Below are positions 1-64,000 of a stretch of DNA of 64,000 nt, one piece after another (within the stretch, counting starts at the first letter, position 1; the number at the start of each line of letters is the position of its first letter). Position numbers and translations under genes: made by a program. This DNA comes from Fragilariopsis cylindrus CCMP1102 (taxonomy: Eukaryota > Bacillariophyta > Bacillariophyceae > Bacillariales > Bacillariaceae), in assembly GCA_900095095.1 (NCBI GenBank), contig FMBT01000386.1, forward strand, positions 107,171 to 171,170, given 5' to 3'. The notes beneath the pieces are model-generated. The model did no database searches. It saw only the letters and a list, made by a program, of their open reading frames with translations, and was not told the DNA's origin.

Positions 1-1595
1 ATTTTTTTCATTTCCATCTGAACAACATCCCACAGAGACTTATTCCGCCACTCTAATCCTCTTGTTTTTTGTTGTGCCGGTGTCCCATCTGTTGAAGTGA
101 CCATTGAGTAATGAGAGGTGGCTCGTCGGACAGGATCTCTCATCATAACAAAAAACTTCATTTTCCAATCGAAGACACGTTTTAGACGTGGAATGACACG
201 ACGACTATCTAAGAGATAACTGGGTGAAGAATCACCCGTTTGACAAGAACCCGATTCTTAACATGATCAGTGAAAAAGAATTTTGACAGTATTCCAATTG
301 TTTACTTTTTGTTTTGATTTTTTCATCCCATCTCCAATCGAGACAATGTGTTTCACGTCGTCGTGCCTTAATGACCCATGGATGTTCATTAATGTAATGA
401 TATAGACTAGTCGTACCGGCTTTTTGTGCACCCAAAATGATATACGATGGTGTAGGACGTGATACCATATCTTTAAGCCGATCAACAGATCGTCTCGTTT
501 GGACTAATTTCTCTTTCGGTTCCAAAACGATTGGAATGAGCGGTGATGAAACTTCTGATGGTGATGATGATGATGATGATTTCCCGGCTGTATTATTATT
601 ATTATCATTGTTATTCCTATCATTATCATTATCTTGCACGATGTAATCTAAAATCAAATGAACTCGATGGTCGTTGTCACAATTACTAACGGCATGTTTG
701 GCTTGATTGTTAATTTCAAATAGTACTCCCGGTTCACAATTTATTCTTTGTAGTAAATGTGTTGCTGGACCGCATTGGAAACTATCTTTGATGGGTCTTG
801 TACTAAAACAGGAACATGAACCCGGTGTGTCGTCTTCACCCATTCACCAGTATCATGATGGACAGGAATAGTCGAACCTGGTGGAAGACTTGCTAACAAG
901 GCACGGACCAACAATCCCTTTGAATTACTTCCGGGTGGAGGAAAAATTACATCCACTATAGGTTGTATCGCATCTTCAAATTCTTTCCACCATGGAAATT
1001 GATATACCTTGGTTAGAAAATCATCAGAGAAAATTAATACGATCTTTCCTATCCCCCATGCGTCGTGTGAGGGTCGTGATAGTGTACATTGGTATTGGCA
1101 GCATTCCGTGGATCCCAATAATTTGTCGGTGACAATACCGGCATAGTATTATTATTTCATCATCGTTACTATTATCATTATGATTTTCGTCGTCGTGTCG
1201 GCTTTATAATTCATATAGTTCAAATCATATCCCTCACGGACCATATTTTGTAATTTTGATATATCTACATTTTGACCTCGTGTCGACCAACATATTGGTT
1301 GAGCAATGATGGTTGGGACTTCATCGGTTGTTGTGATTCTGAATCAGAATCAGAATCTGTCGACTCTCTTTCTATCTTTTTTTCATCGTTTCCGTTATCA
1401 TTATTATCATATCATTATCGTTATCGTTATTATAGAAAGAAAATGGATAGGTAGGTTGAGTTTTATCTTGCAATGAAATTTCACCCAACTGATTATGCGG
1501 GGCACAAGGCTTCAGTGGAAAGCCATCATAGCCTTCAATTATTTGATGGCTACTTGGTGTTGGCGGTCGATTTCTTCTTTCGACGTAGGTGCCAT
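1..1595 (-). CDS. Asp/Asn beta-hydroxylase-sulfotransferase fusion protein (3' end outside window, frame-broken)
   Basis: Read leftwards, the best start is ATGGCACCT at 1595-1593. A low-complexity N-terminal part is followed by an aspartyl/asparaginyl beta-hydroxylase fold (about 1130-640): PGSTIPVHHDTGEW, THRVHVPV, FEINNQAKHAVSN and HRVHLILDY carry the expected HxD and distal His of an Fe(II)/2-oxoglutarate enzyme. After an Asn/Ser linker comes a PAPS-dependent sulfotransferase: the 5'-phosphosulfate loop ILGAQKAGTTSLYHY (about 440-395), GDSSPSYLL (about 230-205), and the 3'-phosphate motif RDPVRRATSHY (about 130-95). The gene runs off the left edge. It is split into several frames; each break (near 1542, 1055, 787, 275, 245) fits one missing base, so I treat it as one gene rather than several. 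Seen: both domains in one collinear reading. Inferred: one bifunctional polypeptide. The substrate is unknown. A true pseudogene remains possible. Confidence 0.75.
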
Positions 1596-1898
1596 CTTGA
1601 TTTGCCGGGTTTTCGATATTACTTGTCTGGAGTTAGCTTATTAAGAAGTAAAATGGACAGTCAAAGGGGAAAGAGGAGAACAAACAACAACATGAACAGA
1701 AAGACAAGACGAGTGAATTGTGAGACAAAAAAATGAAAAATAAATGGAAGAAATTTAGTCACGGATTGATGAACAAGGACTGAAACTGCCACCGCCATTC
1801 CTTCCTATTATATTTTAAAAATACATGATTTTTAAAATTCATTAATTTTGATCATCGTTTGTTGTCAAGAACAAAAAGATTAAGCGCCAAGCTTGTTA
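1596..1898. promoter_or_regulatory. Divergent intergenic promoter region
   Basis: This AT-rich spacer lies between the leftward hydroxylase-sulfotransferase and the rightward ZNHIT3-like gene, so both 5' regions must lie here. I see no recognisable factor site beyond A/T runs around 1810-1850. Confidence 0.4.
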
Positions 1899-7485: not shown

Positions 7486-10400
7486 ATGACGGACGCCGTT
7501 GCAGTTGAAGAGTCTGCCGTTCTAGCAACCAACATCGATGTTGGATTGACGGCAAGCGAGGTTGAATCGCTACGTGAAAAATGGGGATGGAATGAGATTC
7601 CTACACCCACAATTCCGACCTACATTCTCTTCCTACGTCAGTTCACAGGATTCTTATCAATCATCATCATGATTGCTGCTATTGTAGCAATTGCCGTCGT
7701 TGATTATCCGGATTTTATTGTCATTGTCTGCATGCTTATCGTTAATGGTACGTACCGTATAATATATATTATATTATAATATATATAATATAATATCGTC
7801 GATGAGTCAATTTACCGTGCGAACGTCGTTATCGTCTTTCGTGATTATTCTACTTTATTGATCACTATTATTAATTAACTTACGCACACAATTCATTGCT
7901 TCTATTGTTTATAGCCTCTCTTGGTTTTCACGAAGATTACAAGTGCAAGAAGAGTTTGGATGAACTCAGCGCCTCTTTAGAGAGCGAAATCGCTATTCGT
8001 CGCGAAGGTAAAACGGAAGCACTCCCAACAAAGGAATGTTTACCAGGTGATATCGTTCTATTGGTTGGTGGAACTATTCTCCCTGCTGATATCAAATGGG
8101 TCAGGGGTGACAAAATGTCTATCGATACTGCTGCCCTGACTGGCGAGCCCATCCCCCGAAAGTATCCAGGTGAACACGGCGATGTCATGTTGTCCGGTTG
8201 TACCGTTCAATCTGGAGAGTGCTATGGAATGGTCGTAAATACCGGTATCAACACGGAAATTGGTCAAGCTCAGGCTGATGTGTTGGCCGATAAATCTACC
8301 AATACTATTTCCGTCTTCGAATATAAGATTCTAACCATCGTGAAGATTTTTGTCGCAGCCAGTCTCTCATTGGTTCTTGCTGTTCTTTTGGTGAAGGGTT
8401 TCGTCTTTGGTGGTTTTCACCCAACGCCAGGATCTGCTGGTGCAGAGATGCAACCAGGCTCTTATTTGACAAAATCAGTTCAGAATACGATTCTTGCGGC
8501 TCTCTCTATTTTAATTGCCTCTATCCCAATTGCATTACCACTCGTCTTGCAGGTGAATCTTGCTTTGGGAGCCGCTTTCTTGGCAAAGGAACACAGTGCT
8601 ATTGTTACCAGTATTCCTGCCCTTCAGGATATTGCCAGTATGAGTATGCTTTGTAGTGACAAGACAGGAACGTTAACAACGGCCAAAATGACCGTGATCA
8701 ATGATCGTTGTGTACCTATTGGTGATTTTACTTCTGACGATGTCATTCGTTATGCAATGCTTTGTTCGAATGCTGACAAGAAGGATGATCCTATCGACAA
8801 GGCTGTTTTGGAGGCCTACAGTAGATCTGAGACGTCCAAATCGGATGGAGGATACAAGCAAACTGAAATTATTGGTTTCAACCCAACAGTGAAACGTGTT
8901 GTTGCCTTCGTTGACTTCAAGGGCAAAGTCATAACTGTTGCCAAGGGATTGCCCGCCAAGATCATCGACACAGCAGCTGGTAGTGTGGACGACCATGAAT
9001 GTCAATGGAAAGTAGTAGGAGCTGATGATCCGAAATTTGTTGAACATATCACTTCAGAAGACTTTGAATTATCCTCAGCTGGTTACAAGACTATTGCCAT
9101 CGCTATGTGTGAAGGAGATGGCCGCAAATCTGATCATGGTGAATGGAATTTGTCGGTCTTATGCCTATGCTCGACCCACCTCGTGAAGATACTCCAGCTA
9201 CCATTGCGTCTTTGCATCATGCAAATATCTCCGTGAAAATGATTACAGGTGATCACGTCAACGTTGGTAAAGAAACTTGCCGTTTGATTGGTCTCGGAAC
9301 CGACCTTCATGCTGGTGAGGAAATCCGTAATGCCGAAAACCCTGAGGCCAGGAATGAAATGATCTGGGCTGCTGACGGTTTTGGTGCGGTTTTGCCTAGT
9401 GATAAGCGTGAAGTTGTCTTGACACTCAGAAACGTGTTTGGTTTGGTAACTGGAATGACCGGAGATGGTGTCAACGATGCCCCTGCCCTTTCTGCTGCCC
9501 AAGTCGGTATTGCCGTAGAGGGAGCCACAGATGCCGCACGTAATGCTGCCGATCTCATCCTTACTGAACCTGGTCTACGACCTATCTATGGTGCAGTTCT
9601 CGAGTCTCGCCGTATTTTTGCCCGTATCAAGTCCTATGTGGTGTACAGGATGGCAGCATCTGCTATTCTGGTATTGGTCCTGTCCATTATTTGTTTCGCT
9701 GGTCAAGGTTGTACTGTTGAATCCATCCTGGTCATTATATTGGCTCTCCTCAACGACATTTCTATGCTTCCCGTTGCCTACGATAATGCCGATGCCACTG
9801 CGAAACCTCAGCTTCCCAATACGACCAAGCTGATTCTTGTATCACTATACTATGGACTTATTCATTCCGTTTTGGCTTTGATTTTCCTCTTTCTAATCGG
9901 TAATAGTCCAACAAATAATGGTCTCACGAGTAATGTTGATTTTGCTGCATGCGCTGAAGGCGACCGAAAAACAAGTGGATTTATTTGGTTGCATCTTGTA
10001 ATTGTAACGGAATTGGCTATCTTTTCGGTTCGTGCTCCGTCTTTCTTCTTCTTGTCGATGCCAAATCTCATGTTAGTAGTCTCTGTCTTCGCAACTTGCA
10101 TTGGAGCTAGTATCTATGCGGTCTTCGGGAGTGGCATTACTGGATGGGCTGTTCTATGGATCTGGGTTTTTAACCTTGTTTCTTTCGTTGTTGTCGACGC
10201 GGGCAAGATTTATTTCCGCAGAATTATTGGTGATGCCCCCGGTGACATCATTGTAAGCGATGAGCTTATTGAAGTTCAAAAGAAGAATGAAGTTGAACTC
10301 CACCAAGAGAAAAAGGAGCGTTACAGTATCCATAGAGAAGCCGTCATGGATCCTGCCGATTTCGAACGTCCTGTGGTTGAAGTTGGTGGCTTATTCAACG

Positions 10401-10519
10401 TTCGCAACTATGACGGAGGTATCAGGAGTACACAGCCTGGTGCCAGGATGTCGTCCATGCGTGGAGCATCAACACCACGTCGTTACAAGACCGTTTCAGC
10501 TCCTGAATTGAATTGGTAA
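7486..10519 (+). CDS. P-type plasma-membrane H+-ATPase (P3A-like), one intron, one frame break
   Basis: Exon 1 is 7486-7747 and exon 2 is 7915-10519; the intron 7748-7914 has a GTACGT donor and TTTATAG acceptor. Adding one base gives 956 codons, a normal size for an H+-ATPase. Seen: N-terminal cation-ATPase region, first membrane helices (ILFLRQFTGFLSIIIMIAAI), actuator loop LTGEPIPRKYPGE, phosphorylation motif CSDKTGTLT (about 8655), hinge MTGDGVNDAPALS (about 9460), and M6 segment ALLNDISMLPVAYDN with the Asp expected for proton coupling. The gene pumps H+ out of the cell (or into a vacuole) using ATP. The actuator has TGEP where plant and yeast pumps have TGES. The C-terminus lacks an obvious plant-type autoinhibitory tail. 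The frame breaks near 9145, where EWEFVGL would be read if GG were GGG. The family call is firm; ion specificity is inferred. Confidence 0.9.
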
Positions 10520-11320
10520 AACAATTTGAACTACGTTCTCATCGTCGTGTTATGAGAACTGGTCCCCTAAAAAAATATGTGTGCATCAAAAAAAAAATTG
10601 TAATGGTAGTGACAAGAGCTATTTATTAGTTACAAAATATTGTATCTAAAAATAGATAAATAAGATCTTCCATTTAGTGTTGAAATTCATAACTTACCTT
10701 TGATCAACTATTTTCTATCTTATATAGAGAATACTCTCAAACTGTTAGGAAGCATGCAAACTTAAAAATGTCTTCCAATTTCGTGTGTATTGAGTATCAT
10801 TTTCTACTCCAACAAAAGATACAGAGGATGAAAATTGTCACATGATGATTATAATATGATGAATAGGATCTTTTCTATATTACATGATAAAATGCAGGAC
10901 AAATAATGGCCATGGTCAACTACAGCATCATACAGTAGGCACTACCAATACTAGAGACAGATAACAGTGTTATATTAAGAAGAAAAAACAAAATAGCGGA
11001 TAAAAGAAACTTTATTTTTGGTACACCAATCTTGCAATCGGGGGAGCGAGATAGGATTTTTATTTTATTTTATTTTCCCCTCCATTAATTGAATCTGTTC
11101 ATCACTTTCCTCTGATTCGATAATTTCTTCGTCATTCACACAAGAACGATGATGACGATGATGACGACGATGATGACGATGGTGGTTTCATACTTCTGTA
11201 GTACTGTACGTAACATTGCTTAACATCGAGCCATCGTATAACGAATGGGAACATTATCCAGATAGTCCTACAGCATCAACGCGACAAACCCACAACCAGA
11301 TCAGAACATATCTTGAAACC
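10520..11320. other. Intergenic region between H+-ATPase and SDR genes
   Basis: AT-rich, with homopolymers near 10568-10600, a TTTTA repeat at about 11060-11080 and a GATGACGAT-type tract at 11150-11185. No coding sequence is recognised. It holds the ATPase 3' UTR and the SDR promoter/leader. Confidence 0.4.
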
Positions 11321-12522
11321 ATGAAAAGTCTTCTCATTTGCATGCTGGTCAGCATTTTTGCTTTTAAGAAAGTAGAGAGTTTGTCGCCTTCAAAACCTCC
11401 ATCACCTGTCAAGAAAGTAAATAATGAAATTGGTAGAAAATCTTTTCTTATTGGGGCAGCAGCATCGGGGCTTGTCTTAGGGACAACATCAACATCTGCT
11501 GGAGCGGCGGTTGCTGCAATCGACCGAACAACAAGCAAGAATAATGGTGTTGGTGGAAAGAATCAACCGTATGAACCACTCAGAGGTTCATTAACCGATA
11601 ATGTTATTCTCATCACAGGAGGTTCTACGGGCCTCGGACTTGAATCGGCCAAACGATTGGCAGTTGCCGGTGCGACTATCGTTGTCACTAGTCGGAATGA
11701 GGCTAAAGGGGAGAAATCAGTTGAAGCGATTCAATCGTACTTAAAAGAAAGAGGAATCATCAACGATGTTCCTAAAATTTACAGTCTCGTCCTTGACCTT
11801 GATGATTTAGATTCGGTGAAGGCATTTCCAAAATTATACAAACAATTGGGTATTGGAGACATCAATATCTTAATGAACAATGCAGGCGTCATGGCAATTC
11901 CAGATCGACAATTGACAAAGATGGAACGAACGAACATTTCAATCAAATCATCTCGGGCACTTCGTGCTAACAGCTGGTCTATTTCCTTATCTATCACGAA
12001 AAAAGGCTACTGTTATCAACGTGTCGTCGAGGCATATCAATTCACAGGTGGAAAGTTTGATATTGATAATCTTAATGCAGAAAAGGAGTATGGTGCTGGT
12101 CATCATACGGTTTGTCAAAATTAGCAAATATATTGTTCACAAATGAATTGCAACGACGAGCGGATGAAACAGGAAATTCTTTTCTAACTACCGTAACGCT
12201 TCATCCAGGAGCAGTATCAACAGATCTAGGAAGGAATCTAATAGGCGAGGAGAAATGGAATGAACTCAAAACAAAGGGACCATCACCTCTCGAATCAGTC
12301 GCGATAAATGCTCTCTCTAAATTTACTAAGACGGTACCTGAGGGTGCATCAACTCAGATATTTTTAGCTGCTGCAGGAGCGGATAAAACTCTTGTTCCAG
12401 GAGCATTTTATGAGAATGAAAAGGTAAAGAAACTACCGCCATTCGCTACTGATGCAACAAGTGCAAAGGAGCTATGGGAAAAGAGCGAAATACTTGGCGG
12501 AGTAATATTTGATCTAAAATAA
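11321..12522 (+). CDS. Short-chain dehydrogenase/reductase with plastid/thylakoid-type leader (frame-broken)
   Basis: I choose ATG 11321 over upstream codons because it begins a clean signal peptide (MKSLLICMLVSIFAFKKVES). A second leader follows, GRKSFLIGAAASGLVLGTTS, with a basic pair before a hydrophobic core, as in thylakoid targeting. The Rossmann fold starts at LITGGSTGLGLESA (GxxxGxG NAD(P) motif), then NILMNNAGVM, VINVSSRHIN, and the catalytic YGLSKLA (YxxxK) readable near 12107-12125. These features fit the retinol-dehydrogenase/protochlorophyllide-reductase-like SDR group; substrate unknown. The 1202 nt become 402 codons after adding four bases: two at 11920-11926, one near 12043 and one near 12104. 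Plastid location is inferred. A genuine pseudogene cannot be excluded from sequence alone. Confidence 0.75.
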
Positions 12523-12687
12523 ATATAACAAATACAACAATGTGATGACAGCATCATGACTAGTAGTTAAATATGCTAATTTTATTACCTTTATTCAGAA
12601 TATATTTTTACAGTTATTAAGATGTGAAATTGATATTTTTATCCGTAATGCGAGCAGTATAAACGATCACACGAATCTAATCTAAAA

Positions 12688-19892: not shown

Positions 19893-20228
19893 GATTATCT
19901 ATGTTGTGTTGTGTTGTGTTGTTGTATTAAACAATTACTTAACTTATTGTTTGTAACGTCTTCAATATTACTTGTGATATCGTCTTTGTTTTGTTGTTGT
20001 TACTGTTACTGTTGTTCTTGCTGTTTTCTGGACGTCCTCGTTGCTCGCGTAGAAAGAGTTTTTTTTGGAGGGACGAGAAAAGAAATCAAATAATAATGCA
20101 CCTGTTTCAACACGCACAACAGACGAACGCGCAAATTAAGGTTGAAGTTATAAGAAAAAATCCTGTCTGTTGTACGTTTGTGATCTGTCGTCACGAGCAG
20201 ATACAACATATTACACTATACGCAACAC
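19893..20228. promoter_or_regulatory. eIF3g upstream region
   Basis: Region 5' of the leftward eIF3g gene: a GTTGT-repeat and T-rich leader (19900-20030) followed by AT-rich sequence. It must hold the promoter. No gene is seen. Confidence 0.4.
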
Positions 20229-20328
20229 TAATGAGCAACTAAGCTCACACTTCTAATAAACACTATTTACATACGATAGTTTAGGAAGACTTCAGTCCAG
20301 TGAGCCTAGGTAGCTAGATGCATTTACA
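20229..20328 (+). repeat. Degenerate solo-LTR relic
   Basis: This stretch matches the 3' half of the complete element's LTR: it shares CTTCTAATAAACACTATTT, then ACATACG, and finally TAGGTAGCTAGAT.CATTTACA, with several substitutions and small gaps. The right end is at 20328 (TTTACA). The 5' half is not recognisable, so the left limit is approximate. It is an older copy of the same LTR family, about 850 bp left of the intact element. Confidence 0.75.
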
Positions 20329-40398: not shown

Positions 40399-40439
<41 letters not shown>

Positions 40440-51058: not shown

Positions 51059-51561
51059 TAAATGGAGCTCAAACAAAATGAATCGTTATCGGTCCATTTC
51101 ACTATACATAATACTGGATAAAAAATTATATATTAAAAGATAGCATCTAGGTCCTACAATATCTATTTTAACTGTTGTAATACCAGTTTAGACTGGTATA
51201 GATATTTGTATACAGTTATGGGTCTCCAAGCTTGCAACGAATATAATTCATTACTAGCGTATATAATAATTGAAGACATCACCAATATACCATCTATTAA
51301 TCGTGCGCTACAGCATATAAAGGAGACTTGGCAACGATGTCGAACGCGACTCTCTTTGTTACTAAAAATACTACAGTTTATCAGTTTCAATTCCTATTTG
51401 CATTTTAAATTAAACTTTCAATTTATTAATGACGAGGGTGATTACGTCGGTATCTAATTATGTAACTTAATTATGAGGTTAAGTATTTCATATTATATGT
51501 TTTCAATATAAGCCTTTATAGGAGTTGGAGAAATAATCACGGTAACAAGCTATCCGTTGGT
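51059..51561. other. Convergent intergenic spacer
   Basis: AT-rich 503 bp between the converging ABC transporter and SET-domain genes. It should hold both 3' UTRs. No gene is recognised. Confidence 0.45.
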
Positions 51562-53058
51562 TTACTCTATGTTGATGTTTGTAATTGCCTTTTCCTCAGA
51601 TTCTAAGGCTACACGTAGTGCCTCGAAGAAAGGATTCCATTCCGAGTATACTCCAAGATCATTTCGTTCAGCCTGTTGTGTCTTCAGTTTACTTTGGCAG
51701 TCCTTTAATTCGTCTAATCTACGTCGCTTGAGTTCCTCCAATACATCTTTGGCCAATGAACTGCCGTCATCTTCTTCGGGATGACCTAACTGTGCCGCCA
51801 AACTGTTTAGCATCGTTAATCCGTTGGATAGAGATTCTCGTGGAGTATTCGACTGTGCGTCATAGGAAAAAGTAGCACGATCTTCTGACACTATCGTGTA
51901 TGCCTTTAACCCCGGATGATCTAACAATTGTCGACAAGCGTATTCGCCAAATGTATTAGGACGGACTTTGTTGGCTGCATCCAATAAATCTTGCCAAGTC
52001 CAAAACACAACCGAGTTTGGATTGTTCGGAATAGTAAAGCCATATGTTAATAAAAGTTTCCAGTTGTCCTTGTCATCACCGTATGACAAAAAAACTTCAT
52101 CACCTGCTTTTATATCAGAAGAGGAGGTTATAACCCACATTGATGGTTTCGATTCCGATTTCGGTACAAGTTGTAATTGCGTACCAGAACCAAAACCATG
52201 GTTAAGTAAATCTAATCCAGGAATTAATGCCAACGGTACTCGACTATTTCCATCATCCTCATCATCCTCATCATTAGGATCATCATTTAGTAGTTCGGGA
52301 ACCGCTACCGATCGTGTTCTAACATTAGAAAAAGCCCAAAGTGCGTCATCAACGGTATATGTATCTTTCTTTGATATCCGTGTAACGAAGTTGTTAACTT
52401 TCTGTCGTGTCGCATCAAAAGTTTCAGAATAACATCTCGGTAATATCTTTGAGGTTTCTTTCCATAAATCGACGGGTAAAGTCCAAATCGTAAAATGAGT
52501 TGTAGGAAGGACGTTCACAACGTACGGATCTACTCCTGTAAACATATCGATTTCTTCATAACGCAATTGGAGCAAAGCAAGACCTAATGCTTCCTCGTCA
52601 TCAAACTTTATTCCGTCCAAATCATCATCATCATCATTAATGCAATCATCTACATCATTATTTTTGCAATTCTCGTTGTTCTTTCCGTCGTTATTTTTAT
52701 TTTGCAGACCTCGTCGTCGACGACGTATTTGTTCTACCGTTATTGTATCTTCTAGCGGTATTTCTAACAAAATATCACCCACCGATCGGTCCACTAGAGT
52801 ACGAACGAATCGTTCATCCTTATTACCACCGCCATCTGTTGTTGTTTTTGTAAGTTTTAATGCATATGGTTCTAAATATCGTGTTTCTGTGGCCGCTGCT
52901 ATTACCGCGCTATTGTCGTTATCGTTACTACTGTTCTTGATAAAACTATTATTGTTTTTCCGCTGATGCGATGAATGTGATGACTGATTGAAGCACGTAA
53001 CCAACGAAGGCAGTAGTAGGACGGGGAAGAATAGTTTTAATAAGCGCATCGGATCCAT
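51562..53058 (-). CDS. SET-domain protein lysine methyltransferase (Rubisco LSMT/SETD3 class)
   Basis: Intact 498-codon ORF from ATG 53058. It starts with a signal peptide (LLKLFFPVLLLPSLVTCFN); a Phe follows the likely cleavage site, as in many diatom plastid leaders. The SET domain is split by an insert, as in Rubisco large-subunit methyltransferases: LPTTHFTIWTLP, then IPGLDLLNHG (the NH of the cofactor pocket), then SSSDIKAGDEVFLSYG and LLLTYGF. A C-terminal helical substrate-binding domain follows and ends in charged coiled coil. It transfers methyl groups from S-adenosylmethionine to lysine (or His, in SETD3) of a target protein. A plastid target is likely from the leader but unproven. 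Poly-Asn/Asp inserts lie in the N-terminal part. Confidence 0.85.
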   Translation of the reverse strand: MDPMRLLKLFFPVLLLPSLVTCFNQSSHSSHQRKNNNSFIKNSSNDNDNSAVIAAATETRYLEPYALKLTKTTTDGGGNKDERFVRTLVDRSVGDILLEIPLEDTITVEQIRRRRRGLQNKNNDGKNNENCKNNDVDDCINDDDDDLDGIKFDDEEALGLALLQLRYEEIDMFTGVDPYVVNVLPTTHFTIWTLPVDLWKETSKILPRCYSETFDATRQKVNNFVTRISKKDTYTVDDALWAFSNVRTRSVAVPELLNDDPNDEDDEDDGNSRVPLALIPGLDLLNHGFGSGTQLQLVPKSESKPSMWVITSSSDIKAGDEVFLSYGDDKDNWKLLLTYGFTIPNNPNSVVFWTWQDLLDAANKVRPNTFGEYACRQLLDHPGLKAYTIVSEDRATFSYDAQSNTPRESLSNGLTMLNSLAAQLGHPEEDDGSSLAKDVLEELKRRRLDELKDCQSKLKTQQAERNDLGVYSEWNPFFEALRVALESEEKAITNINIE

Positions 53059-53736
53059 CGTTATGTACCCGAATGAGAGCTTTATATGTCCTCTCTCTCT
53101 CTCTCTTCTTGTTGCCTAGTTATTGCCTATATAGTGGAAACGAAGAGTAAAGTGCTTGTGTTTTAGGTTGTGTGTGTTGGATGCAATTATTATAAATGGG
53201 AAATTAGATTTTATTCGTGGATTGTGATAGGAAGGAAGTATTGTGATGCATCGTTTTTCGATTGAGTTGTGATCGGAATAAAGTGATTCATTCATCCAAT
53301 TTTTGATTTTTTTTTAAATTTTATGGACTACGGTAGTGGACCCAGGGGTAGATTATTACCCCTGAGTGGACCTCACTCTAGCACCTCGTCAGAGGGGCAA
53401 TAGTCTTTTAAAAAAAGATAAATATTTTCTATTAAGTAATGTCGTTAAGAAAATGTTTGAAGATGAAAATCAATTAGATCACGTAGAAAACATTGATATG
53501 AGTACGAGGACCGATTTATGTTTGTGAATCCTACTGTATCCAGCAGACACAAAACCTTAAAATCTTGCCTTTAATTTTAAATTTTTTTCATAATTTTTAA
53601 ATTATTTTAATCCATCATCAATATCACAAATCGATCGACGTCACTAAACAGTTTCGATTACAAATCGTTTGCCGCTCTCTCACTTCACATTTCCGCACTT
53701 TTCTAGCACTACGAAACGTAACAGACCAACTGAGGT
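53059..53736. promoter_or_regulatory. Divergent promoter region with an 8-bp-stem hairpin
   Basis: 678 bp between the leftward SET gene and the rightward WD40-like gene. It has a CT repeat beside the SET start (53090-53107) and a perfect inverted repeat CAGGGGTA/TACCCCTG at 53343-53350 and 53357-53364 with a 6-base loop. No gene is seen. Confidence 0.5.
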
Positions 53737-56472
53737 ATGGAAAAAGATGATCCACCCAAAGTTGATTCTTTTGTATGGACCGACAATAGCAGCTGCTGCG
53801 ATGACGACGATAGGAAGCAAAACAGGAAATCATCATCATCATCATCTTCGTCGTGGAGGATCGACTCGATACGGTCTTCGAAAATATATGACAGTGATCC
53901 GCATTCGTTGAAAGAACCAAATTCACATGTTGCTTGGAAGAATGAACTAAAACTTACCAGGTTTGCTAATCAAGAATTACCGGAAGCATTATGGGGATCC
54001 AATTGTTTAATTTTAACACATTTAAATACGGGTGTTCAGATATCCTTTTGTGCCTTAGAGGCATTACGAATATGGACGTTGATGGATGATGAACCGATTA
54101 TTCCACACTTATCAGGACGGATACCAGATGCTTGGGATTATACATACACGACGAATTATTCTGGTTCCATTGAAAAAACGACGACGACGACGACAGTGGA
54201 ATCAGCAGCATCAGCAGTAGCAGCATTAGCAGCGATGGCTAGTACAGTTGCTGCCAAACAGCCCAATGGAACGACTCAATACGCGATACGAACGTCAACG
54301 ACGGCAACGACAACGACTGGACCAATAATGCCATTAGTTGAGCTTCGACCACCAATGTGTAAATGTATTGGTGGAAGAATGATTTGTGCAGGAGTTGCGA
54401 AGAGTATAACAACCACAATGAAGACGACAACGAAATTGAAAATTCAACAACAAGTACCTCAGCTACTGTCTTCGACAACGCCACCGAAACCATCTCCCAA
54501 GTGGATACCTTGTGATGAAGATGACGGACCTTTCGATATGGAAGGTCTGCTAAATGCACAGAGATTACCACCTTTGTATTATACAAATCAAATTCCGTTA
54601 TGGAACCAAAACCTTGATCCACATAGTTATTCTTTTTTGACCGTTACATCGCTGGTGTGTAGTGACAACAATAACAACGATAAGAAATTGGGTAGTGGTT
54701 TCATTGCAATTCTGTTGCGATGTTTTGTTCGAGTTAACGGTGTGAGAGTACGTCTCATCGATACAAAGTATATTATTCGAAAAAGAAAACAAAAACGACG
54801 ACGACGACGAGACACAGATGACGACAGAATTGACTACGACGACAACGATAATAGTATAGATGATGATTTCGAAACAGCAACAGTCATATTACGTGAACAA
54901 TCTTGGAAGGAAGGATCCTGGAACGAATTCTTGACTGGAAATAAAGATTTATCTAAAAAAACCAACAATAATGATTACGATGATAATAAAGATGCAATCA
55001 AATTAATTAACTTGGGGACCGATCTAGAGCAAGGACGGCGTGCTTCAAAGAATCTTCAACACAAATTTCCTCCAATTTTCGAAAAAATTATTCTCTACGA
55101 TGACGACGATGATGATGATGATGATGATGATGACGACAACAACCTAAATTCACCGATAATATCAAGGATGACGACTACCACTTTCAGAAATCGACCAGCT
55201 ACTCCTATTCCACGTCGTACTACAATGATATCAGAGTGGATCCTACGGAATGAAAGCGGCGATTGTGTCATAACACGTTGCTCGAGTGCGTCTGGAGTTG
55301 TTATATCGGTAGTCGATAGCAATAGAATAATGGTATTTGATTATCAGTCAGGAAAATTACGTTGGGAACGAAAGCAGATATCACCCGAGTATTGCGATGC
55401 TTTGTTGTCTGTGGCGGTGCAGCAATCGCTCAAAGATAAAAATGGCGAAGACTGCGATGTCAATTTGCAGCAACAGCAACAAAGAATCGTGGTGGGAGAC
55501 GATAAAGGAGGTGTTCATATTATCCGCTGTTCTCCTACTGGTGACACACAATCCTTCTTCTTCTCGGCCAATGTCGATCGGAACAAAAATAGCAGTAGTA
55601 AGAATAACATGGTCAGTCGAGAGAAGGTACAGAGATCGTCAGGTTGGGTAGAAAAGGCTACTTGGAGTGAAGATGGACGATACTTTGCCGCAGCGGCTGG
55701 AAAGAAAGTTATGATCAATGGTGAAATTGTTCAGATGGAAGGGACTGTTTACGATCTGACCTTTCTTAGAAGTAACAATACAAATAAGAAAGATCATCAT
55801 CAATTACTGGCTGTTGCTGTTTACGGTGGACTGACAATAGTCAACGCGGATACAATGACAATACGGCACCGCAGATTCACCGTTGGATCATCCGCTGTGT
55901 TGTCGTGTGCTGCTTCGCAGGACGGTCGTTCGATTGGAATAGGTTGTCTAGATAAGCGTCTTCGGATCTTCGAAAAACGCTCGTCCAATAATGAAGACAA
56001 TGATGACGACAGTAACAATGACGACGACGATGACGATGACGAAAGTAATGAAAAACATTGGTCGGCTCGCGATTGGATCGGCTTCGATGGCGGTGTGTCC
56101 TGTATAAGCTACAGTAAAGATAACCAAAGATTGGCAGCTATCGGGGGAACCATTTTGCTGGTTATCGATCGTTACTCGAAATTGGGCGAAGCGCCTGTTA
56201 TTTGCTCCTGTTGGCCGCCGATCACGGGTAAACTAAAAAGAAGTGACAAATTCAAATCGTTCGCATGGACCACAAAAAACATCCTGGTGGCTTCGACAGA
56301 ACATTTCGTACACGTCTTTGATGTTTTGGAAGTTGTAGATACAGTACCAAAACGATGTTATCCTATAGAATCGATACCGATTGAGAAGAAAGATGGGTAT
56401 CTTGTAACAGACATTGAAGGTGAATTTTTGGTGTGGAAAGGATCAAAGATAAGAAAAATCAAAGTATCATAA
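53737..56472 (+). CDS. WD40/beta-propeller-like protein of unknown function
   Basis: Intact 911-codon ORF. The N-terminal half (about residues 60-360) holds a conserved-looking block with CALEALRIWTLMDDEPIIPH and HSYSFLTVTSLVC, interrupted by Thr-rich inserts; I cannot name it. The second half reads as propeller blades: GVVISVVDSNRIMVFDYQSGKL, RIVVGDDKGGVHIIRC, VEKATWSEDGRYFAAAAG, LSCAASQDGRSIGIGCLDKR, CISYSKDNQRLAAIGG and FAWTTKNILVASTEHFVHVF. These are the D-G-R-blade patterns of WD40 repeats, spaced irregularly by acidic tracts. It is probably a scaffold in the cytosol or nucleus, with no signal or membrane segment. It is convergent with the UBA-UIM-PUB gene, 250 bp away. Confidence 0.65.
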   Translation: MEKDDPPKVDSFVWTDNSSCCDDDDRKQNRKSSSSSSSSWRIDSIRSSKIYDSDPHSLKEPNSHVAWKNELKLTRFANQELPEALWGSNCLILTHLNTGVQISFCALEALRIWTLMDDEPIIPHLSGRIPDAWDYTYTTNYSGSIEKTTTTTTVESAASAVAALAAMASTVAAKQPNGTTQYAIRTSTTATTTTGPIMPLVELRPPMCKCIGGRMICAGVAKSITTTMKTTTKLKIQQQVPQLLSSTTPPKPSPKWIPCDEDDGPFDMEGLLNAQRLPPLYYTNQIPLWNQNLDPHSYSFLTVTSLVCSDNNNNDKKLGSGFIAILLRCFVRVNGVRVRLIDTKYIIRKRKQKRRRRRDTDDDRIDYDDNDNSIDDDFETATVILREQSWKEGSWNEFLTGNKDLSKKTNNNDYDDNKDAIKLINLGTDLEQGRRASKNLQHKFPPIFEKIILYDDDDDDDDDDDDDNNLNSPIISRMTTTTFRNRPATPIPRRTTMISEWILRNESGDCVITRCSSASGVVISVVDSNRIMVFDYQSGKLRWERKQISPEYCDALLSVAVQQSLKDKNGEDCDVNLQQQQQRIVVGDDKGGVHIIRCSPTGDTQSFFFSANVDRNKNSSSKNNMVSREKVQRSSGWVEKATWSEDGRYFAAAAGKKVMINGEIVQMEGTVYDLTFLRSNNTNKKDHHQLLAVAVYGGLTIVNADTMTIRHRRFTVGSSAVLSCAASQDGRSIGIGCLDKRLRIFEKRSSNNEDNDDDSNNDDDDDDDESNEKHWSARDWIGFDGGVSCISYSKDNQRLAAIGGTILLVIDRYSKLGEAPVICSCWPPITGKLKRSDKFKSFAWTTKNILVASTEHFVHVFDVLEVVDTVPKRCYPIESIPIEKKDGYLVTDIEGEFLVWKGSKIRKIKVS

Positions 56473-56720
56473 AATCAAAGCTGTTCTTTCACCCTATAAA
56501 CAAGATAATGTCATGTATTAGAATAAGTCTCGGGATTTACTTGGGACGAATATATATATATATAATTAGACTTTAGACTAACAATATTTTAAATTAGATT
56601 CTATTCTCATCGTTCATTTACCTTCATAATATACTTATATGATGATAATTCTTCATCAATGAGGGACATTAATATAACATACAGTACGTAATGTTAAACA
56701 ATGTCGAGTAAGTGCTCCTA

Positions 56721-58274
56721 TTAATCTATTTCAATGGCATGATCAGCGTCACATCCATTCTCATTCTCATTATTATTATTTTGCTGTATCCCAACACGTG
56801 AAGAAGCTGAAGCTGAAGCGGAATATATAGCAGCAGAGTTACTATTAATTATGTTGAAGGGACGAGCTGAAACGGGTAATAACTGTTGTTGTTGTTGGGC
56901 TACCGCCGCAGGACGTAGACGTGTCTTCTTATAAAAGTTCTGTAAGCTAGGAACTATTGCTATCCGTCCGGATGGCCAACAACCGATATAGTGAAGAGTT
57001 TTATTGGATAATTCCGACACATCCAGACGATGGTAATTATAATCTTCTTCGGAACCATGTGTATTACGATCCACAAGACTCCATTCACCTGTCTCTAATT
57101 TACTCGGTATCATACTGGCTTGACTACCTAACCAATTTATTACATCCTCCAGAATATCATCATGATCAAATCCTCTTGATATTTTCATCAATTGTTGGAT
57201 GTTATTGTCGTTACTATTACTATTATTATCTGCATTGTTGTTGTTGTTGTTATTACTTATATTAATTCCGAATTCGACAGTGATTTGAGAACCTTGACCT
57301 CCCGTGATAGGTTCGGATGGAAGTTTCGATAGGTATCTCTTTCTTGCCGATGCTTCCTCCTTATTATCATTATCATTATCATCTATCTTCAAATTCAAAG
57401 CCGGTGCTAATTCTTTTTGGAATAATCGAAGTGCCTTATGTCGAGCATATTCCGGTGATGTTTGTTGTATTTGTTCTAATGCTGATATTCCTAAATAAAA
57501 AGCTGCAGCATCATAATGTGATAACGTCAAAATAATTTGATTATTATTATTTTCAAAGTTGGTGGTGTTTGTTGGTGAATGATGAGGATGAAAATTAAGA
57601 GCTTTTAATAAATCTAAGACACCCGGTGCAGTTAATGATCGTTGAAAGGTAACAGTAGAGGTATTCACCGTATGGAATTTACGATTGCTGGGATTGGATT
57701 GAATGGTCTTCAATGATCGTAATAAAGTATCCACACTGAATGAATAGGGTGCCACACGATTCACACATCGTAATATAACATCTTCTTGATCATGTTGTGA
57801 TAATCGTTTCGGCATTTGTACTTTTGGATGGGTTGTAGTTAGTCCGTTCTTTTTCATCTTCGTTACTATCTGAACAACTTCAGGAGCGGTAGACGTTGTT
57901 GTTGTACGTGTCGCAGCTGCTGCTCGACCAGCATTTTTATGAGTGTTGTTATTATTGCCTACCATTAGACTTGCTTGAATTGCATGTTGTAATTCACTAT
58001 CATCCTCATCTGTTGTTGTTGTCATCATCGTTGATGATACTGGTGTTCCATGTTGTAATAACCATTCAGTGGCTCGAGTCCAATCTCCATTTGCTTCACG
58101 AAGGGCGTGTCTCGCTTCTGCTGGTCTAAATCCCATAGCCGATAGTTCCTCAACACGTCTATCGGTAGTGGTGGTTGTACCCGTAATACCTGTCGTCATA
58201 GTCGTCACCGATGATAGTGACGATGCTGCGTTCGAAACGGCATCGTTCACTTTATCTCTGAATCGACGGAACAT
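56721..58274 (-). CDS. UBA-UIM-PUB protein, probable Cdc48/p97 cofactor
   Basis: Intact 517-codon ORF. Domains in order: N-terminal helix; UBA (about residues 39-75: VEELSAMGFRPAEARHALRE, then WLLQHG); a UIM (about 90-103: DDSELQHAIQASL); PUB domain (about 160-260: CVNRVAPYSFSVDTLLRSLK, then NPSNRKFHTVN, and LLKALNFH); and a C-terminal helical and Asn/Gln-rich part. UBA and UIM bind ubiquitin, and PUB binds the C-terminal tail of Cdc48/p97, so it probably links ubiquitylated clients to the AAA ATPase in the cytosol or nucleus. The combination recalls UBXN6/PUB-domain cofactors but lacks a UBX domain. The role is inferred from domains. Confidence 0.75.
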   Translation of the reverse strand: MFRRFRDKVNDAVSNAASSLSSVTTMTTGITGTTTTTDRRVEELSAMGFRPAEARHALREANGDWTRATEWLLQHGTPVSSTMMTTTTDEDDSELQHAIQASLMVGNNNNTHKNAGRAAAATRTTTTSTAPEVVQIVTKMKKNGLTTTHPKVQMPKRLSQHDQEDVILRCVNRVAPYSFSVDTLLRSLKTIQSNPSNRKFHTVNTSTVTFQRSLTAPGVLDLLKALNFHPHHSPTNTTNFENNNNQIILTLSHYDAAAFYLGISALEQIQQTSPEYARHKALRLFQKELAPALNLKIDDNDNDNKEEASARKRYLSKLPSEPITGGQGSQITVEFGINISNNNNNNNADNNSNSNDNNIQQLMKISRGFDHDDILEDVINWLGSQASMIPSKLETGEWSLVDRNTHGSEEDYNYHRLDVSELSNKTLHYIGCWPSGRIAIVPSLQNFYKKTRLRPAAVAQQQQQLLPVSARPFNIINSNSAAIYSASASASSRVGIQQNNNNENENGCDADHAIEID

Positions 58275-58731
58275 TATTTATATTATTACGAAATATGAAT
58301 ATATAGAGTAGTTATTGTTTTTTTTTCGAACAAATTGAAAAGTAAGGATGCTGATGATTTGTTTGAAACCGAATTTTATGGGAGATATATATCTACACTT
58401 TGTTGCTTTTGTTGGCAACACAATAATAGCAGCCTCAACAACCACACTTGCTTTCTCTTCTTATCCGACAACTAAAGAATTAAAGTCTTTTCTCTTGACA
58501 TCGATCTCCTTCGAAAATTAACACGACTGCTGTGGGACTCAATCGGTCCAGTCATGAATCGACTGGCTCGACTATCTAATGAAAGCAAAACACTGAGAGG
58601 AATGTCAAATGCCAAGGAAATTTAAAATAAATTAATTACTATCATCACAGCATTACAACATTACAAACATTACAACACAAAATAGCTACAGAGTATAGAG
58701 TACAACAACAACAACAACAACAACAACAGCA
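58275..58731. promoter_or_regulatory. Divergent promoter region with (CAA)n leader
   Basis: 457 bp between divergent genes. The last 30 bases before ATG 58732 are a CAA repeat (about 58703-58729), which would form an unstructured 5' leader of the flavodoxin-like mRNA. Confidence 0.55.
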
Positions 58732-59847
58732 ATGGCGTCTACCTCCTCTTCCGATGAGGATGCCACTACTACTAGTATTCGTACAGAACCTATATTTGTG
58801 TTGTACGGATCACAAACTGGAAACAGTGAACAAGCAGCAGAAGATTTCTGTCAGGTGATGAAGGAAAAATATACACCCTCCTACTTTCGTACTTTAAATT
58901 TACTACCCATTACGGTTCAACCAACCTGTCTCCAACTGGATGATTTTTTAGATTATCAACATGCCGCCTATACTAAAACTATCGTGATTTTTGTGTCCAG
59001 TTATGGTGTGGGACAAGCACCCATCGGATCGTATAAATTCCGATCCTTTGCAGAGGAATTATTGTCATTGGTCGACAATGAAATCACCACAACAAAAAAT
59101 AATAGTACAGGAGGAGGAGGAGGAGACAACAACAACAACAACAACAGCAACAACAAATATGCGACACTTCTCAAGGGACTTCGTTATGCTATCTGTGGAC
59201 TCGGTACGTTTTGTGTCTGTGTTTATGTATTTGTACTTGTATAATCACTTTTCGCTTTGAGTTTTCATCAAAAATAAATCTTTCGTATATACTGTAGCGT
59301 AAAATATGATGTTGCTGAATATAATACTATTGTTCATTTTCTAATCCATATTTCTTCTTCTTCTTCTTCTTCTTCTTCTTCTTCTTCTTCTTCTTTTCAA
59401 ATAACATATGACGTATAAACAGGAGATTCTAATTATACAACATATCTAGTCAATCCAACCACAATAGATAAAGGTTTAACGGCTGCAGGTGCTACACGGA
59501 TTGGTGATATGGGTAAGGCTGATGCAAATGCAAAGAAACAACTTGGAAATGATGCTCAAGATAAGGTTATTGCTAGATGGAAAGAAGAATTGTACATTCC
59601 GTTGGCAAAGGCCTTATCATCATCATCATCATCAACTGATGCTGTAGTAAAGGATGTAAAGGAAATGCAAGCTGATACCATCCCAATTCTAATGAAATTA
59701 GATAAGGATTATACTCCTCCAAAAGAATTCAGGAAAGGAATGTCAATTACTGCTGCTGTTGGAGGTATACCGATCATCTACTTAATATTGGGTATAATTG
59801 TCGCACTGGTCGCTGCTGCCTACCTTCACTTATTACCTGTTCAATAA
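58732..59847 (+). CDS. Flavodoxin-like protein with C-terminal membrane anchor (two exons)
   Basis: Exons 58732-59203 and 59423-59847 (GGTACG donor, AACAG acceptor) give exactly 299 codons with no frame break. The FMN phosphate loop is LYGSQTGNSEQAA (about residues 24-36). VIFVSSYGVGQAP (about 84-96) and GLRYAICGLGDSNYTTY (spanning the intron) match the isoalloxazine-binding loops of the FMN domain of diflavin reductases. After an Asn insert and a helical region (KADANAKKQL...IARWKEEL) a single hydrophobic segment, GIPIIYLILGIIVALVAAAY, ends the protein. It is therefore a free-standing flavodoxin fold, tail-anchored with the flavin domain in the cytosol. No FAD/NADPH domain is attached, so a partner reductase would be needed. 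Electron-transfer role is inferred. Confidence 0.8.
59352..59395. repeat. (TTC)n microsatellite in the flavodoxin-gene intron
   Basis: About 14 TTC units within the single intron, 27 bases before its acceptor, where they form part of the polypyrimidine tract. Confidence 0.85.
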
Positions 59848-59848
59848 T

Positions 59849-59868
59849 GATTCGATTCGAATCGAATC
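59849..59868. terminator. 20-bp perfect palindrome just after the flavodoxin-gene stop
   Basis: GATTCGATTC followed by its exact reverse complement GAATCGAATC starts one base after the TAA. It could fold in mRNA, but it may be incidental; no U-tract follows, so terminator function is only a suggestion. Confidence 0.35.
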
Positions 59869-60217
59869 CCATTCGTAGACGATGTTATCTATCTAGAGTA
59901 CTTCGTAGCAACGAAAACAAATAAGACGAATATACAACTTTTGTACTACTCTGTCTATTAAAAATTGTAGAATATGATTGTTTAATATGCATTTAATACT
60001 AATATTATATTATAATAAGGGTTGCCGTCATGTGCATTCATCTATCGAAATCCAACATGTTCAGTAACATATTTCTGTTTTATAGAACTATCATGTTTTT
60101 AGATAAATAATTTTGATTTGGTTGTCAGTCAGTCCAACGATTTTTCTCTTGGTAATCGACATACTTCTTCTTCTTCTTCTTCTTCTTTGCTGTACAAAAA
60201 TGTCAAGTACGATCTTT
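59869..60217. other. Convergent intergenic spacer
   Basis: AT-rich spacer between the converging flavodoxin-like and HSF-type genes. It includes a short (TTC)n run near 60164-60187. No gene is seen. Confidence 0.5.
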
Positions 60218-63200
60218 CTACCAGCTCACTTTTGGGTTACCAACGTACTTTTTCTTCAAGAATTCAACAAACTGATTATTATTAGCATTAATTTCATTGT
60301 TTGTTGGGAGGTCACGGATGCTTGTCGATGGAGCATACCCTAACTGATTCCGTAGAAGATCGTCGCGATCTTTCAATAATTTCTCCATACTGGCGTTTCC
60401 AGTAGAAGTATTCGACGATGGCGTGTCAGCGATTGGAGGTTGTCGAGCATACGGAAGACGACCAGCAAGACCAAAGGAACCATCCCGCTCTTGCCGTGCA
60501 ACCTCAATTAACATCTTCACTTGTTCGTCCGTATCTGCCCTTAATCGTTTCTCGTAGACATCTGGGGGAAGATGATCACTGTTTTCTAGTGGTCGTTTTC
60601 CTCCCGCCAAAGATCTATTCGCCAAGTATGCTGACTGAGTCGCCGCTTGCGATGACAACATACCATTGTTACTGCTTGACCTAATTGAATTCAACAATGC
60701 CGCATCACCTTGTAGCATCCTAGATCCCAACTGAGATTCAAGAAGAGCAGCGTTACTTCCAACTCGATTATGCCGCACCGAAGCAGCAGCGTTGTTACTA
60801 GCCATAAGCGATTGAATCTTCTTCTCTTCTGCACAGAAAGCGGTAAAGATAACGTCCTGAGCCTCCGTGTCAGATAAACAGTACAAATCATCATCAGTGT
60901 CAGTCTCCTTCAACTTGAGAAAAAATCGAGATCCTCGCTTACTCATTCTATCCAGAATTGCTCGACACTTAATACGTTTCATTTCAAACGAATCAACTTG
61001 CTGTCCCACATTTGCTTGGATCATTGTAATTAGATACGTATTTCCCTCTTTCTCGCTCGATGGACCTCCCCTCAATACTACATCTTTATCGCTCGGTGGG
61101 TACTGTATACGTCTTCGAGTATCAGAGCTTGTGCCAACAATACTGTCCGAATTTATATTCCCCGGAATGGATAGATCTGGCTTTAAACCAACAACAGCTG
61201 ATCCTATCATGCTATTAGGAATGCTACCAACGGAGAGATCTGATTTAATAGTCGTGGGTGCTGGAGCTTCTAACTCGAAACAACTTATTACCTTAAGATT
61301 AATTTCTTCTTCATTGCATTCCATCCAATTCCGTCCATCTTCAGTTAGCTTCAGAAACCTCGAACCACCCTTTTGAATTCTACTTGATATTTCATTAACG
61401 ATCATCGCCTTAACGGATTCATTTGCTGATATAAAATGACTTGTAATTTTTTGTGGCAATGGAAGATAATTTTTTATTCCCCTGAAATTGTTCTACGTTA
61501 GGCACATCAACGCATAATACATCTTGCGGATCAGGATTGATAATCGTAATACTTTGCTTCGTCGTTGCCATAGCAGCAGCAGCAGCAGCAGCATCATATG
61601 TACCAGGCGTCATCGTCATCATGTTCTGATGATTAGGATAGGGATGTTGTTGCTGCCGTTCGTGCAACTGCTGTTGGTGTAGTTGCTGCTGCGATTGCAT
61701 TCCATTCTTCATGGGTCCCTCGTGTAAATACAAATGCCGTTGATGATGCGCCGTTGAGACGGGATAATGATGCATTGAATAACGTGTTGGTTGCTGTTGT
61801 CCTTGCCCAAGATGTTGAGGGATTGATGATGTTGGGTTGAAGAATAGGTCTGGACATTACTGTTACCACTGTTGCTACCACTATACATCATCCCGGCACC
61901 CGTAGGAGCCGCATTTTTGACGTGATTGATAGCTAGTGGTTGTCGTTTTCTCCTATTCGTGATCGGAATACCCCTATGGTTTCTTGCCACGGTATCTTTA
62001 GCGGCAGACTTGGCAGCAATACCAGTAGCAGCAGCACCAGTAGCGATGGTGCTAGTAGAAGCAGAAGCTTGACCAACCTTTGCTTGTTGTGCTGGCTGTT
62101 CTCCCCTTGGTACAACACGTTTACGTTTCATGAGAGTACAAGCAGATCTACGTCCTCGTAAGAACATTGGATGAGAAACAACACCCTGATCTTTCCCTCT
62201 TGTTATCCGCTTAAAATCATATCCCTGTAGCTGACGAAGAAAAGATTTGAATTTACTTTGCCGGAAATATTTTTGTAACACATTAATCAATTGTTTCGGT
62301 AGATGAATTTTGAAGCTTTCCCCGCCTGGACTCCACGAAACAATATGTGAATGACCCGTACGTTCCGCATCGTCTAACATGTTATGCAGACGAAATGGGA
62401 ATTGTGATGATCGCTGAAGGTCGTTGTTTGATGCTGTAACGTTGTTCCGATACGTTGTCTCGATGATGACCTGCTGGGTTAGTTTTTTTGTAGCATCAGT
62501 AGAAGCGGCACCACGACCAGCAGTAGCGGGGGCAACACTAGGAGCAGGAGCGGGAGCAGCAGCTTTTTTCTTGGATGATGGTAACGGTTTCAACTTTCTT
62601 TTTTCTTTAACTGTTGTAGCAGTAGCAGTAGCAGTAGCAGTAGCAGTAGCAGCAGGATCAATATGTACATCATCGTCGCGTCTCTTGCTGTAAATGATTC
62701 TTTGTTTTCTACTAGCCCCGATGGCTTCCCATATTATCACGACCATCCTCTTGGTCATGATCTTCTTCTTCTTTAGTAGCAATAGTAGACCTGTCGTCGA
62801 CGGTGTTTTCAGCTGTAATCTCAGCATCGTCATCATCACCATTTTTCTCATCTTTGTTTACCTTCGATGCACCCGTCTCGTTTTCTTCATCGTCGCAGTA
62901 GTAGCTGTAGTAGTAGTGTCGGTGGACTTACTACTGCTGTATTTATTGCGACTACCATTCTCGATAGGAGTGGAATGGAGAAAATGAACAAGATCAGACG
63001 CTGCATCATTGGATAATTTGCTATCAGAAGTAGTTGTTCCTGGTCCTGTATTTTTCTCATCTGATGTAGCTGATGATATCCTTTCTTCTCATCGTTATCC
63101 TTATTATCAGCTTTCACTTTCTCGTTATCATTTTTCGAGGATTCAGCGTCATCATTTGAATTCTTCGTTGACATGACAATATCATCATCATCCGTATCGC

Positions 63201-64000
63201 TATTGTTTTCTTCGTCCTGCTTTTTCTTCCCCTCAACAGCAGAAATAGCATCACCATTCGTCTTCTTTGACATGAACAACATCATCATCATTCGTATTGC
63301 TCTTGTTTTCTTCATCTTCTTTTTCTTCCCCTCAACAGCAAGAATAGCATTATCATTCGTCTTTTTTGACATGACAACATTATCTTCCGTATCGCTATTA
63401 TTACTGTTTTCTTCGTCCTTCTTTTTCTTCCCCTCAACATCAGCAGCAGGAATTGCATCGTCCTTCGTATTCTTTGACGTGACAACATCCTCATCCGTAT
63501 TGCTCTTGGTTTCTTCGTCCTTATTTTTCTTCCCCTCAATATCAGCAGAAATATTATCATATGTCTTCTTTGACGTGACAACACCCTCATCTGTATTGCT
63601 CTTGATTTCTTCGTCCTTCTTTGACGTGACATCATCGTCGTCCGCATTGCTCTTTTTCTTCGTCCTTCTCCTCAACATCAGTAGATTCGTTGTCAGCGTC
63701 AGCGTCAGCAGGGATAGCATCATTATTCGTCTTCTTTGACACGACAACGCCATCCGTCGTATTGCTCTTGCCGTCGTCGTCGGTTTTGTCATTCTTCTTA
63801 CAACGTTCTACTGATTCTCGTCCCGAATCGGTGGTGGTTATTTCTGATGCTGATGCTGATGCCGATTTCGATTTATTCAATTTCCTTGAAGACTTTTTAA
63901 GAGACTTTGACTTTTGAAATTGCTTTTTCCTGTTGGGCTTCTTGATGTCGCTGTGTTCTGCTAGATCATCCGACGATTCACCAGACGAATCATTGATATC
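60218..64000 (-). CDS. HSF-type transcription factor with two DUF6824-like domains (5' end outside window, frame-broken)
   Basis: A long leftward gene whose start lies beyond the right edge. From N to C: a Lys/Asp-rich repetitive region (about 63750-63100); acidic and basic linkers; an HSF DNA-binding domain at about 62430-62120 (FPFRLHNMLDDAE, HIVSWSPGGESFKIHLP, the recognition helix region FKSFLRQLQGYDFKRI); a Gln/His-rich stretch; then a DUF6824-like domain (DPQDVLCV, GNKKL, GGSRFLKLTEDGRNW) at about 61530-61290, and a second (KDVVLRGG, EGNTYL, GSRFFLKL) at about 61090-60830. It ends with helical charged tail. Breaks near 62717, 61775 and 61450 each fit lost bases in C, T or A runs. The heptad oligomerisation region normal for HSFs is not visible. 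Nuclear DNA-binding role is inferred. Confidence 0.75.
63130..63720 (-). repeat. Coding minisatellite, about 100-bp unit, five or more copies
   Basis: On the + strand CCCCTCAA recurs at about 63229, 63328, 63430 and 63531, each followed by a match to TTCTTTGAC(A/G)TGACAAC. The copies are degenerate and spaced 99-102 bp. In the gene they encode variants of VVTSKKTNDDAI...VEGKKKKDEE, a Lys/Asp/Glu-rich repeat of about 33 residues. Confidence 0.75.

What the first reader, a model, noticed from the sequence alone, without database searches (positions are those of the whole stretch)
1..64000. Nine loci are broken by about 40 single-base losses, while others are untouched
In the hydroxylase/sulfotransferase, UBL protein, ATPase, SDR, PH protein, SGNH hydrolase, copia pol, GCN1 and HSF, protein similarity jumps frame at many points. 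Almost every jump is explained by one missing base, mostly in runs of 2-7 identical bases (for example GG for GGG at 9145, A7 for A8 at 17134-17140, five A for six at 273-277). Bases added back make lengths divisible by three: ATPase 1, UBL 4, SDR 4, SGNH 4, GCN1 10, copia gag-pol 10. Single insertions are not needed. About 18 kb of other coding sequence, including 6.5 kb of ABC transporter exons, needs none. Deletion-biased long-read error that was only patchily polished is the simplest cause. Unknown translational frameshifting or RNA editing would look the same and should be excluded.
Basis: partly seen in the sequence, partly recalled or inferred. Interest (0 to 1): 0.75.

Follow-up and report, generated by a model that had tools for sequence, protein, structure and literature searches.

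The report
Assembly errors broke these algal genes
The broken genes in this stretch of a diatom-like genome are most likely sequencing-assembly mistakes, mostly dropped letters, because second copies of several of them in the same assembly read through whole; no new biology is needed.

Summary
The frame breaks are in the given letters, and the evidence says they are consensus errors. The same assembly holds two allelic contigs. C107 matches most of window 10,881-21,175 and 30,717-39,674; C246 matches 55,636-64,000. Three of three broken genes in the first C107 stretch are single open frames there: SDR 437 aa, PH protein 801 aa, SGNH hydrolase 381 aa. In most of GCN1 the contigs differ by one substitution and five single-base indels in both directions, so each breaks where the other is open. 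A repeat copy on contig C458 shows 13 losses and no gains against each of two relatives. An HMM calls no break in 39,675-55,635. Corrections: at C107-verified coding sites losses are mostly lone bases (9 of 11), and the PH break is a net gain of four. Eight of ten GCN1 breaks lie in both contigs and are unresolved. ATPase, UBL and sulfotransferase have no allelic contig. The copia count was not tested. Recoding or editing is very unlikely.

The parts
   Evidence: HMM calls at 254, 773, 1144, 1410; no long match on another contig for window 1-10880; no Pfam family at E 0.001 for ORF 232-843
   Evidence: ORFs of 193 and 198 aa overlap; HMM call at 6114; no Pfam family at E 0.001
7875..10519 (+). 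P-type (plasma-membrane H+-ATPase-like) ATPase in two overlapping frames; one break near 9143
11177..12503 (+). short-chain dehydrogenase, four single-base losses in its coding part against C107
   Evidence: C107 frame of 437 aa, adh_short profile 1-190 of 195 at 100.4 bits; window ORF 315 aa, profile 1-93 at 53.2 bits
12855..15261 (-).
   Evidence: one 801-aa frame in C107; no Pfam family at E 0.01
16126..17230 (-). SGNH/GDSL-like hydrolase, four single-base losses in its coding part against C107
   Evidence: 381-aa frame in C107; weak GDSL match of 19.3 bits, below the 32.9 cut-off
   Evidence: observed only, frames not mended
31659..40648 (-). GCN1 with introns; 10 frame breaks by eye, 2 of them open in C107, which has 3 losses of its own
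39675..55635 (.). stretch with no allelic contig found and no frame-break call; holds the ABC transporter exons
60218..63807 (-). HSF locus, broken in the window; C246 joins the HSF domain and the downstream 424-aa ORF in one 758-aa open frame
10881..39674 (.). span of allelic contig C107 (19,569 bases; lacks the copia element, and 15409-15899 is divergent or unmatched)
55636..64000 (.). span of allelic contig C246 (12385-20702, minus strand)

Best explanation
The breaks are consensus errors of a diploid assembly, chiefly single bases dropped at scattered places, with some added. Shown: allelic contigs of the same assembly keep frames open where the window breaks, and also break where the window is open; in the heterozygous part losses in the window exceed gains; one-sided loss also occurs on another contig; a 16-kb stretch of the window shows no break. 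Inferred: the raw data were error-prone long reads with thin or incomplete polishing; the eight GCN1 breaks shared by both contigs arose because the contigs share reads or the same error in an almost identical tract; the ATPase, UBL, sulfotransferase and remaining HSF breaks have the same cause.
For: C107 holds single open frames for SDR (437 aa), PH (801 aa) and SGNH (381 aa), all broken in the window. SDR's adh_short match rises from 53.2 to 100.4 bits. In the heterozygous part the window is the shorter one at 22 of 28 single-base indels (11 of 13 in predicted coding, 11 of 15 outside; indels of other sizes not counted); sign test p = 0.004. In the GCN1 tract there are 5 single-base indels (window short 2, C107 short 3) and 1 substitution in about 8.1 kb; the window's 840-aa ORF is split into 410 and 497 aa in C107. 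C246 carries the HSF domain and the next ORF in one 758-aa frame. On C458 a repeat copy has 13 single-base losses and 0 gains against each of two relatives, which differ from each other by 36 substitutions and no indel over 2,036 bases. The HMM makes 24 calls in 39.0 kb of predicted coding, none in the 10.3 kb of 39,675-55,635; it found 89 of 120 simulated losses and called nothing in three unmodified test segments.
Against: Eight of ten GCN1 breaks are the same in both contigs, so the allele does not resolve them. Window 1-10,880 has breaks but no allelic contig, so thin coverage after phasing cannot be the whole story. Eleven of 24 HMM calls are gains, against pure deletion bias, and in one other contig trio the HMM call is a gain in the two longer copies (L006, L007 against L008). 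The fetched genome sample also has 0.35 calls per kb against 0.62 in the window, so the window stands out only about twofold. C246 seems frame-broken upstream of the HSF domain. No reads were seen, and the platform is unknown.
Confidence: 0.94

Rival explanations
1. One haplotype really carries decayed (null) alleles while the other is intact.
For: SDR, PH and SGNH are broken only in the window contig; a copia insertion found only in the window contig lies nearby.
Against: In GCN1 each contig has its own breaks with one substitution in about 8.1 kb. The window lacks bases outside predicted coding too (11 short, 4 long). Several nulls per gene in neighbouring genes at once is unlikely (inference). 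C458 shows one-sided loss at another locus.
Confidence: 0.04
2. Programmed ribosomal frameshifting or insertional RNA editing restores the proteins from a truly shorter genome.
For: Eight GCN1 breaks are common to both allelic contigs. Frame evidence alone cannot exclude recoding.
Against: At the four SDR, four SGNH and two GCN1 sites the base is in the DNA of the other contig, so no recoding is needed there. GCN1 breaks differ between contigs. No break was called in about 10 kb of other coding. A paper search gave 154 papers, of which 12 were listed; none of the 12 holds the frameshifting term, and one title reports RNA editing in the diatom Phaeodactylum tricornutum (PMC11857586, listing only; kind of editing not checked).
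Confidence: 0.015
3. Mis-called introns produce false frame breaks.
For: GCN1 has introns with GT-AG ends between several ORFs, read by eye, and the HMM skips 35,111-35,250 as an intron.
Against: The SDR, PH and SGNH breaks vanish in C107 without splicing; overlapping ORFs leave little room for an intron.
Confidence: 0.005

Closest known systems
Indel errors in long-read assemblies that break predicted proteins (Watson and Warr 2019, seen only as a reference-list entry in PMC8147415, content recalled; PMC8147415 seen as passages)
   Same: indels cause spurious stops and frame changes in coding sequence; accurate short reads are used to correct them
   Different: here the test is the other allele in the same assembly; lone bases dominate the C107-verified coding losses; the platform is unknown
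Euplotes ribosomal frameshifting (recalled, not looked up)
   Same: frame changes in many genes
   Different: some sites here differ between allelic contigs of one gene; no site motif was tested
Insertional RNA editing of kinetoplastid and Physarum mitochondria (recalled, not looked up)
   Same: genome lacks bases that the protein frame needs
   Different: genes here have introns, and at ten tested sites the base is in the DNA of the other allelic contig

Membership tests
Assembly consensus error | another copy of the same locus in the assembly has the open frame | tested here: met
   SDR, PH, SGNH: 3 of 3; HSF: longer joined frame; GCN1: only 2 of 10 sites
Assembly consensus error | single-base indels in coding beyond what polymorphism allows, with a one-sided direction | tested here: met
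   11 short against 2 long in heterozygous coding with 24 substitutions; in the GCN1 tract 5 indels to 1 substitution but not one-sided, 2 to 3; C458 13 to 0
Assembly consensus error | accurate reads disagree with the assembled letters | not testable with these tools
   no reads available
Homopolymer-type (nanopore-like) error | losses concentrate in homopolymers | tested here: inconclusive
   9 of 11 C107-verified coding losses are lone bases; C458 6 of 13 lone; background 54.5% lone; but some other pairs differ only in runs, for example 2 of 2 in runs of 3 and 7 and 2 of 2 in runs of 3 and 4
Programmed frameshifting | same site in both alleles of the gene | tested here: not met
   not met for SDR, SGNH, PH and for 2 window plus 3 C107 sites in GCN1; met for 8 GCN1 sites (by eye)
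Programmed frameshifting | common slippery motif at the sites | not tested
   contexts were only read by eye
Insertional RNA editing | RNA carries bases that the DNA lacks | not testable with these tools
   no RNA data
Pseudogene or null allele | frame-breaking changes confined to one haplotype and to genes under relaxed constraint | tested here: inconclusive
   SDR, PH and SGNH are broken in one contig only, but losses also occur outside coding and GCN1 is broken in both contigs

The most novel reading that the evidence does not exclude
The eight GCN1 frame breaks shared by both allelic contigs are true genomic states, and this alga makes GCN1 by frequent ribosomal frameshifting or by insertional editing of a nuclear mRNA.
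Probability: 0.015. Interest if true: 0.85.

Novelty: not a real feature. Interest (0 to 1): 0.1.

Why it matters
Gene calls from this contig (SDR, PH, SGNH, HSF, GCN1, ATPase) should not be read as pseudogenes or recoded genes. The allelic contigs of such a diploid assembly give a quick internal control for apparent recoding before any claim of new biology.

Tried and rejected
Rfam (gathering) and ARAGORN found no RNA gene in the window. Relatives of the ATPase were sought as an outside test of the 9,143 break: several keep long open frames (for example 997 and 1,134 aa) but are distant, and two closer ones on C464 and C117 are themselves interrupted by stops, so they do not decide. That sample includes near-duplicate and repeat loci and is not a clean background rate. 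HMM calls shift with settings: 24, 18, 20 and 14 window calls over four settings, always 0 in 39,675-55,635, and 0, 0, 1 and 0 in the 5' half of C107. The window call at 3,222 sits at the end of an ORF and is probably false. One C107-window alignment piece of about 200 bases (window 15,485-15,687, 92% alike) was left out of the counts. Two of the 11 verified coding losses (17,944 and 18,042) lie in a dispersed repeat and one (17,216) upstream of the SGNH ATG, so their coding label is doubtful. In one search, 16 pair comparisons were asked: one (L033 with L035) failed, one (L011 with L012) gave no row, 14 gave rows. The idea that phasing alone sets error density was not kept, since 1-10,880 has breaks but no allelic contig. 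Paper searches were seen as listings only; one search found no paper with all five terms.

Full report
Setting. The window is the last 64,000 bases of contig C40 (171,170 bases) in a 67.9-Mb, 818-contig assembly. The gene set (GCN1, HSF, ABCA-type transporter, P-type ATPase, introns) looks like a diatom; that label is my judgement and comes from no call. Many kinase matches come in equal-scoring pairs on two contigs, so the assembly seems to keep both haplotypes in places.

The observation. ORFs and a frameshift HMM trained on long ORFs of this genome show frame breaks in the named host loci. The HMM is imperfect: it found 89 of 120 simulated single losses and 84 of 120 single gains, labelled each found one with the right kind, and made no call on three unmodified test segments. 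It made 24 window calls outside the copia element, 13 losses and 11 gains; other settings and training without the window give 18, 20 and 14. No setting calls a break in 39,675-55,635. With the first setting the outside rate is 24 in 28.7 kb of predicted coding, which would give about 8.6 in the 10.3 kb of the clean stretch; the stretch was chosen after the fact.

The internal control. Contig C107 (19,569 bases) matches window 10,881-15,408, 15,900-21,175 and 30,717-39,674 at about 99-99.7%, with a poorer 200-base piece between the first two. In it the SDR is one frame of 437 aa, the PH protein one of 801 aa and the SGNH hydrolase one of 381 aa; the window has 315, 361 plus 457, and 156 aa. 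The SDR profile match goes from positions 1-93 (53.2 bits) to 1-190 of 195 (100.4 bits). At PH the window is four bases longer, so this break is not a loss.

Direction and context. In the heterozygous part the window is the shorter contig at 22 of 28 single-base indels: 11 of 13 in C107-predicted coding and 11 of 15 outside it (sign test p = 0.004 for all and 0.02 for coding). The same 6.8 kb of coding holds 24 substitutions. Nine of the 11 coding losses are lone bases and two lie in runs of two, against 54.5% lone bases in the host part. This does not support a homopolymer account for these sites. Other contig pairs do differ in runs of 2 to 7, and the shared GCN1 breaks can by eye be placed in short runs, so the question is open for the assembly as a whole.

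GCN1. The tract 31,590-39,674 has one substitution and five single-base indels between the contigs, two with the window short and three with C107 short. The window's 840-aa ORF is two ORFs of 410 and 497 aa in C107, and the window's 222-aa ORF is 260 aa there. Each contig thus breaks where the other is open. Reading by eye gives ten breaks in the window; two are open in C107 and eight are the same in both. The likely reason is shared reads or shared error in a nearly identical tract, which is inference.

HSF. Contig C246 (12,385-20,702, minus) matches window 55,636-64,000. Protein searches place the HSF domain part (residues 137-353) and the downstream 424-aa ORF in open frames of the same length, 758 aa; from the first to the last matched base is 2,241 bases, a multiple of three. 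In the window stops lie between the two ORFs. Upstream of the domain C246 itself changes frame against the window, so neither copy is clean.

Elsewhere in the genome. Among repeat copies already fetched, the one on C458 has 13 single-base losses and no gains against each of two relatives, which differ from one another by 36 substitutions and no indel in 2,036 bases. Some other near-identical pairs differ by single-base indels with few or no substitutions, for example two indels and none (C64 and C476), or not at all (C230 and C360); others carry many substitutions as well. In the C64/C476 pair the HMM places its one call, a gain, in the longer copy. Single-base consensus error is therefore not special to the window: the fetched sample has 41 calls in 118.1 kb of predicted coding against 24 in 39.0 kb here.

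Copia. The element spans 21,175-30,716 with two identical 218-base LTRs; C107 has the empty site. Its ORFs are listed. I did not test the ten losses claimed for it.

What remains open. Sulfotransferase, UBL and ATPase have no allelic contig. The eight shared GCN1 breaks rest on analogy. Platform, depth and polishing are unknown. [quoted passage not shown] Watson and Warr 2019 was seen only as a reference entry there. A search for diatom with programmed frameshifting or RNA editing was seen as a listing of 12 of 154 papers, one of which reports RNA editing in a diatom by its title; this is too shallow to claim that recoding by added bases is unknown in diatoms.

Noticed in passing
window 21175-30716: Copia-type element is absent from C107 (empty site), with identical 218-base LTRs and a 5-base target duplication read by eye; a young insertion.
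   Followed up: partly
window 41845-41957 (minus), similarity from about 41500: Decayed 5S rRNA relic (21.1 bits, below the cut-off of 38). Related loci carry 5S genes scattered over many contigs: 9 of 11 loci scanned score over the cut-off.
   Followed up: partly
window 17734-18224: Part of a dispersed repeat with at least 30 matches, mostly 74-84% alike to the window; some fetched copies share about 2 kb at 95-99%. Nature unknown.
   Followed up: partly
G000:C464:544880-546159 and C117:124369-125460: Relatives of the window's P-type ATPase whose matches are interrupted by stops or lie in short frames; pseudogenes, introns or assembly error.
   Followed up: no
window 53734-56472: One 912-aa ORF matches the TIP41-like family in two stretches and has weak WD40 matches further on, below the cut-off; possibly a fusion.
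   Followed up: no
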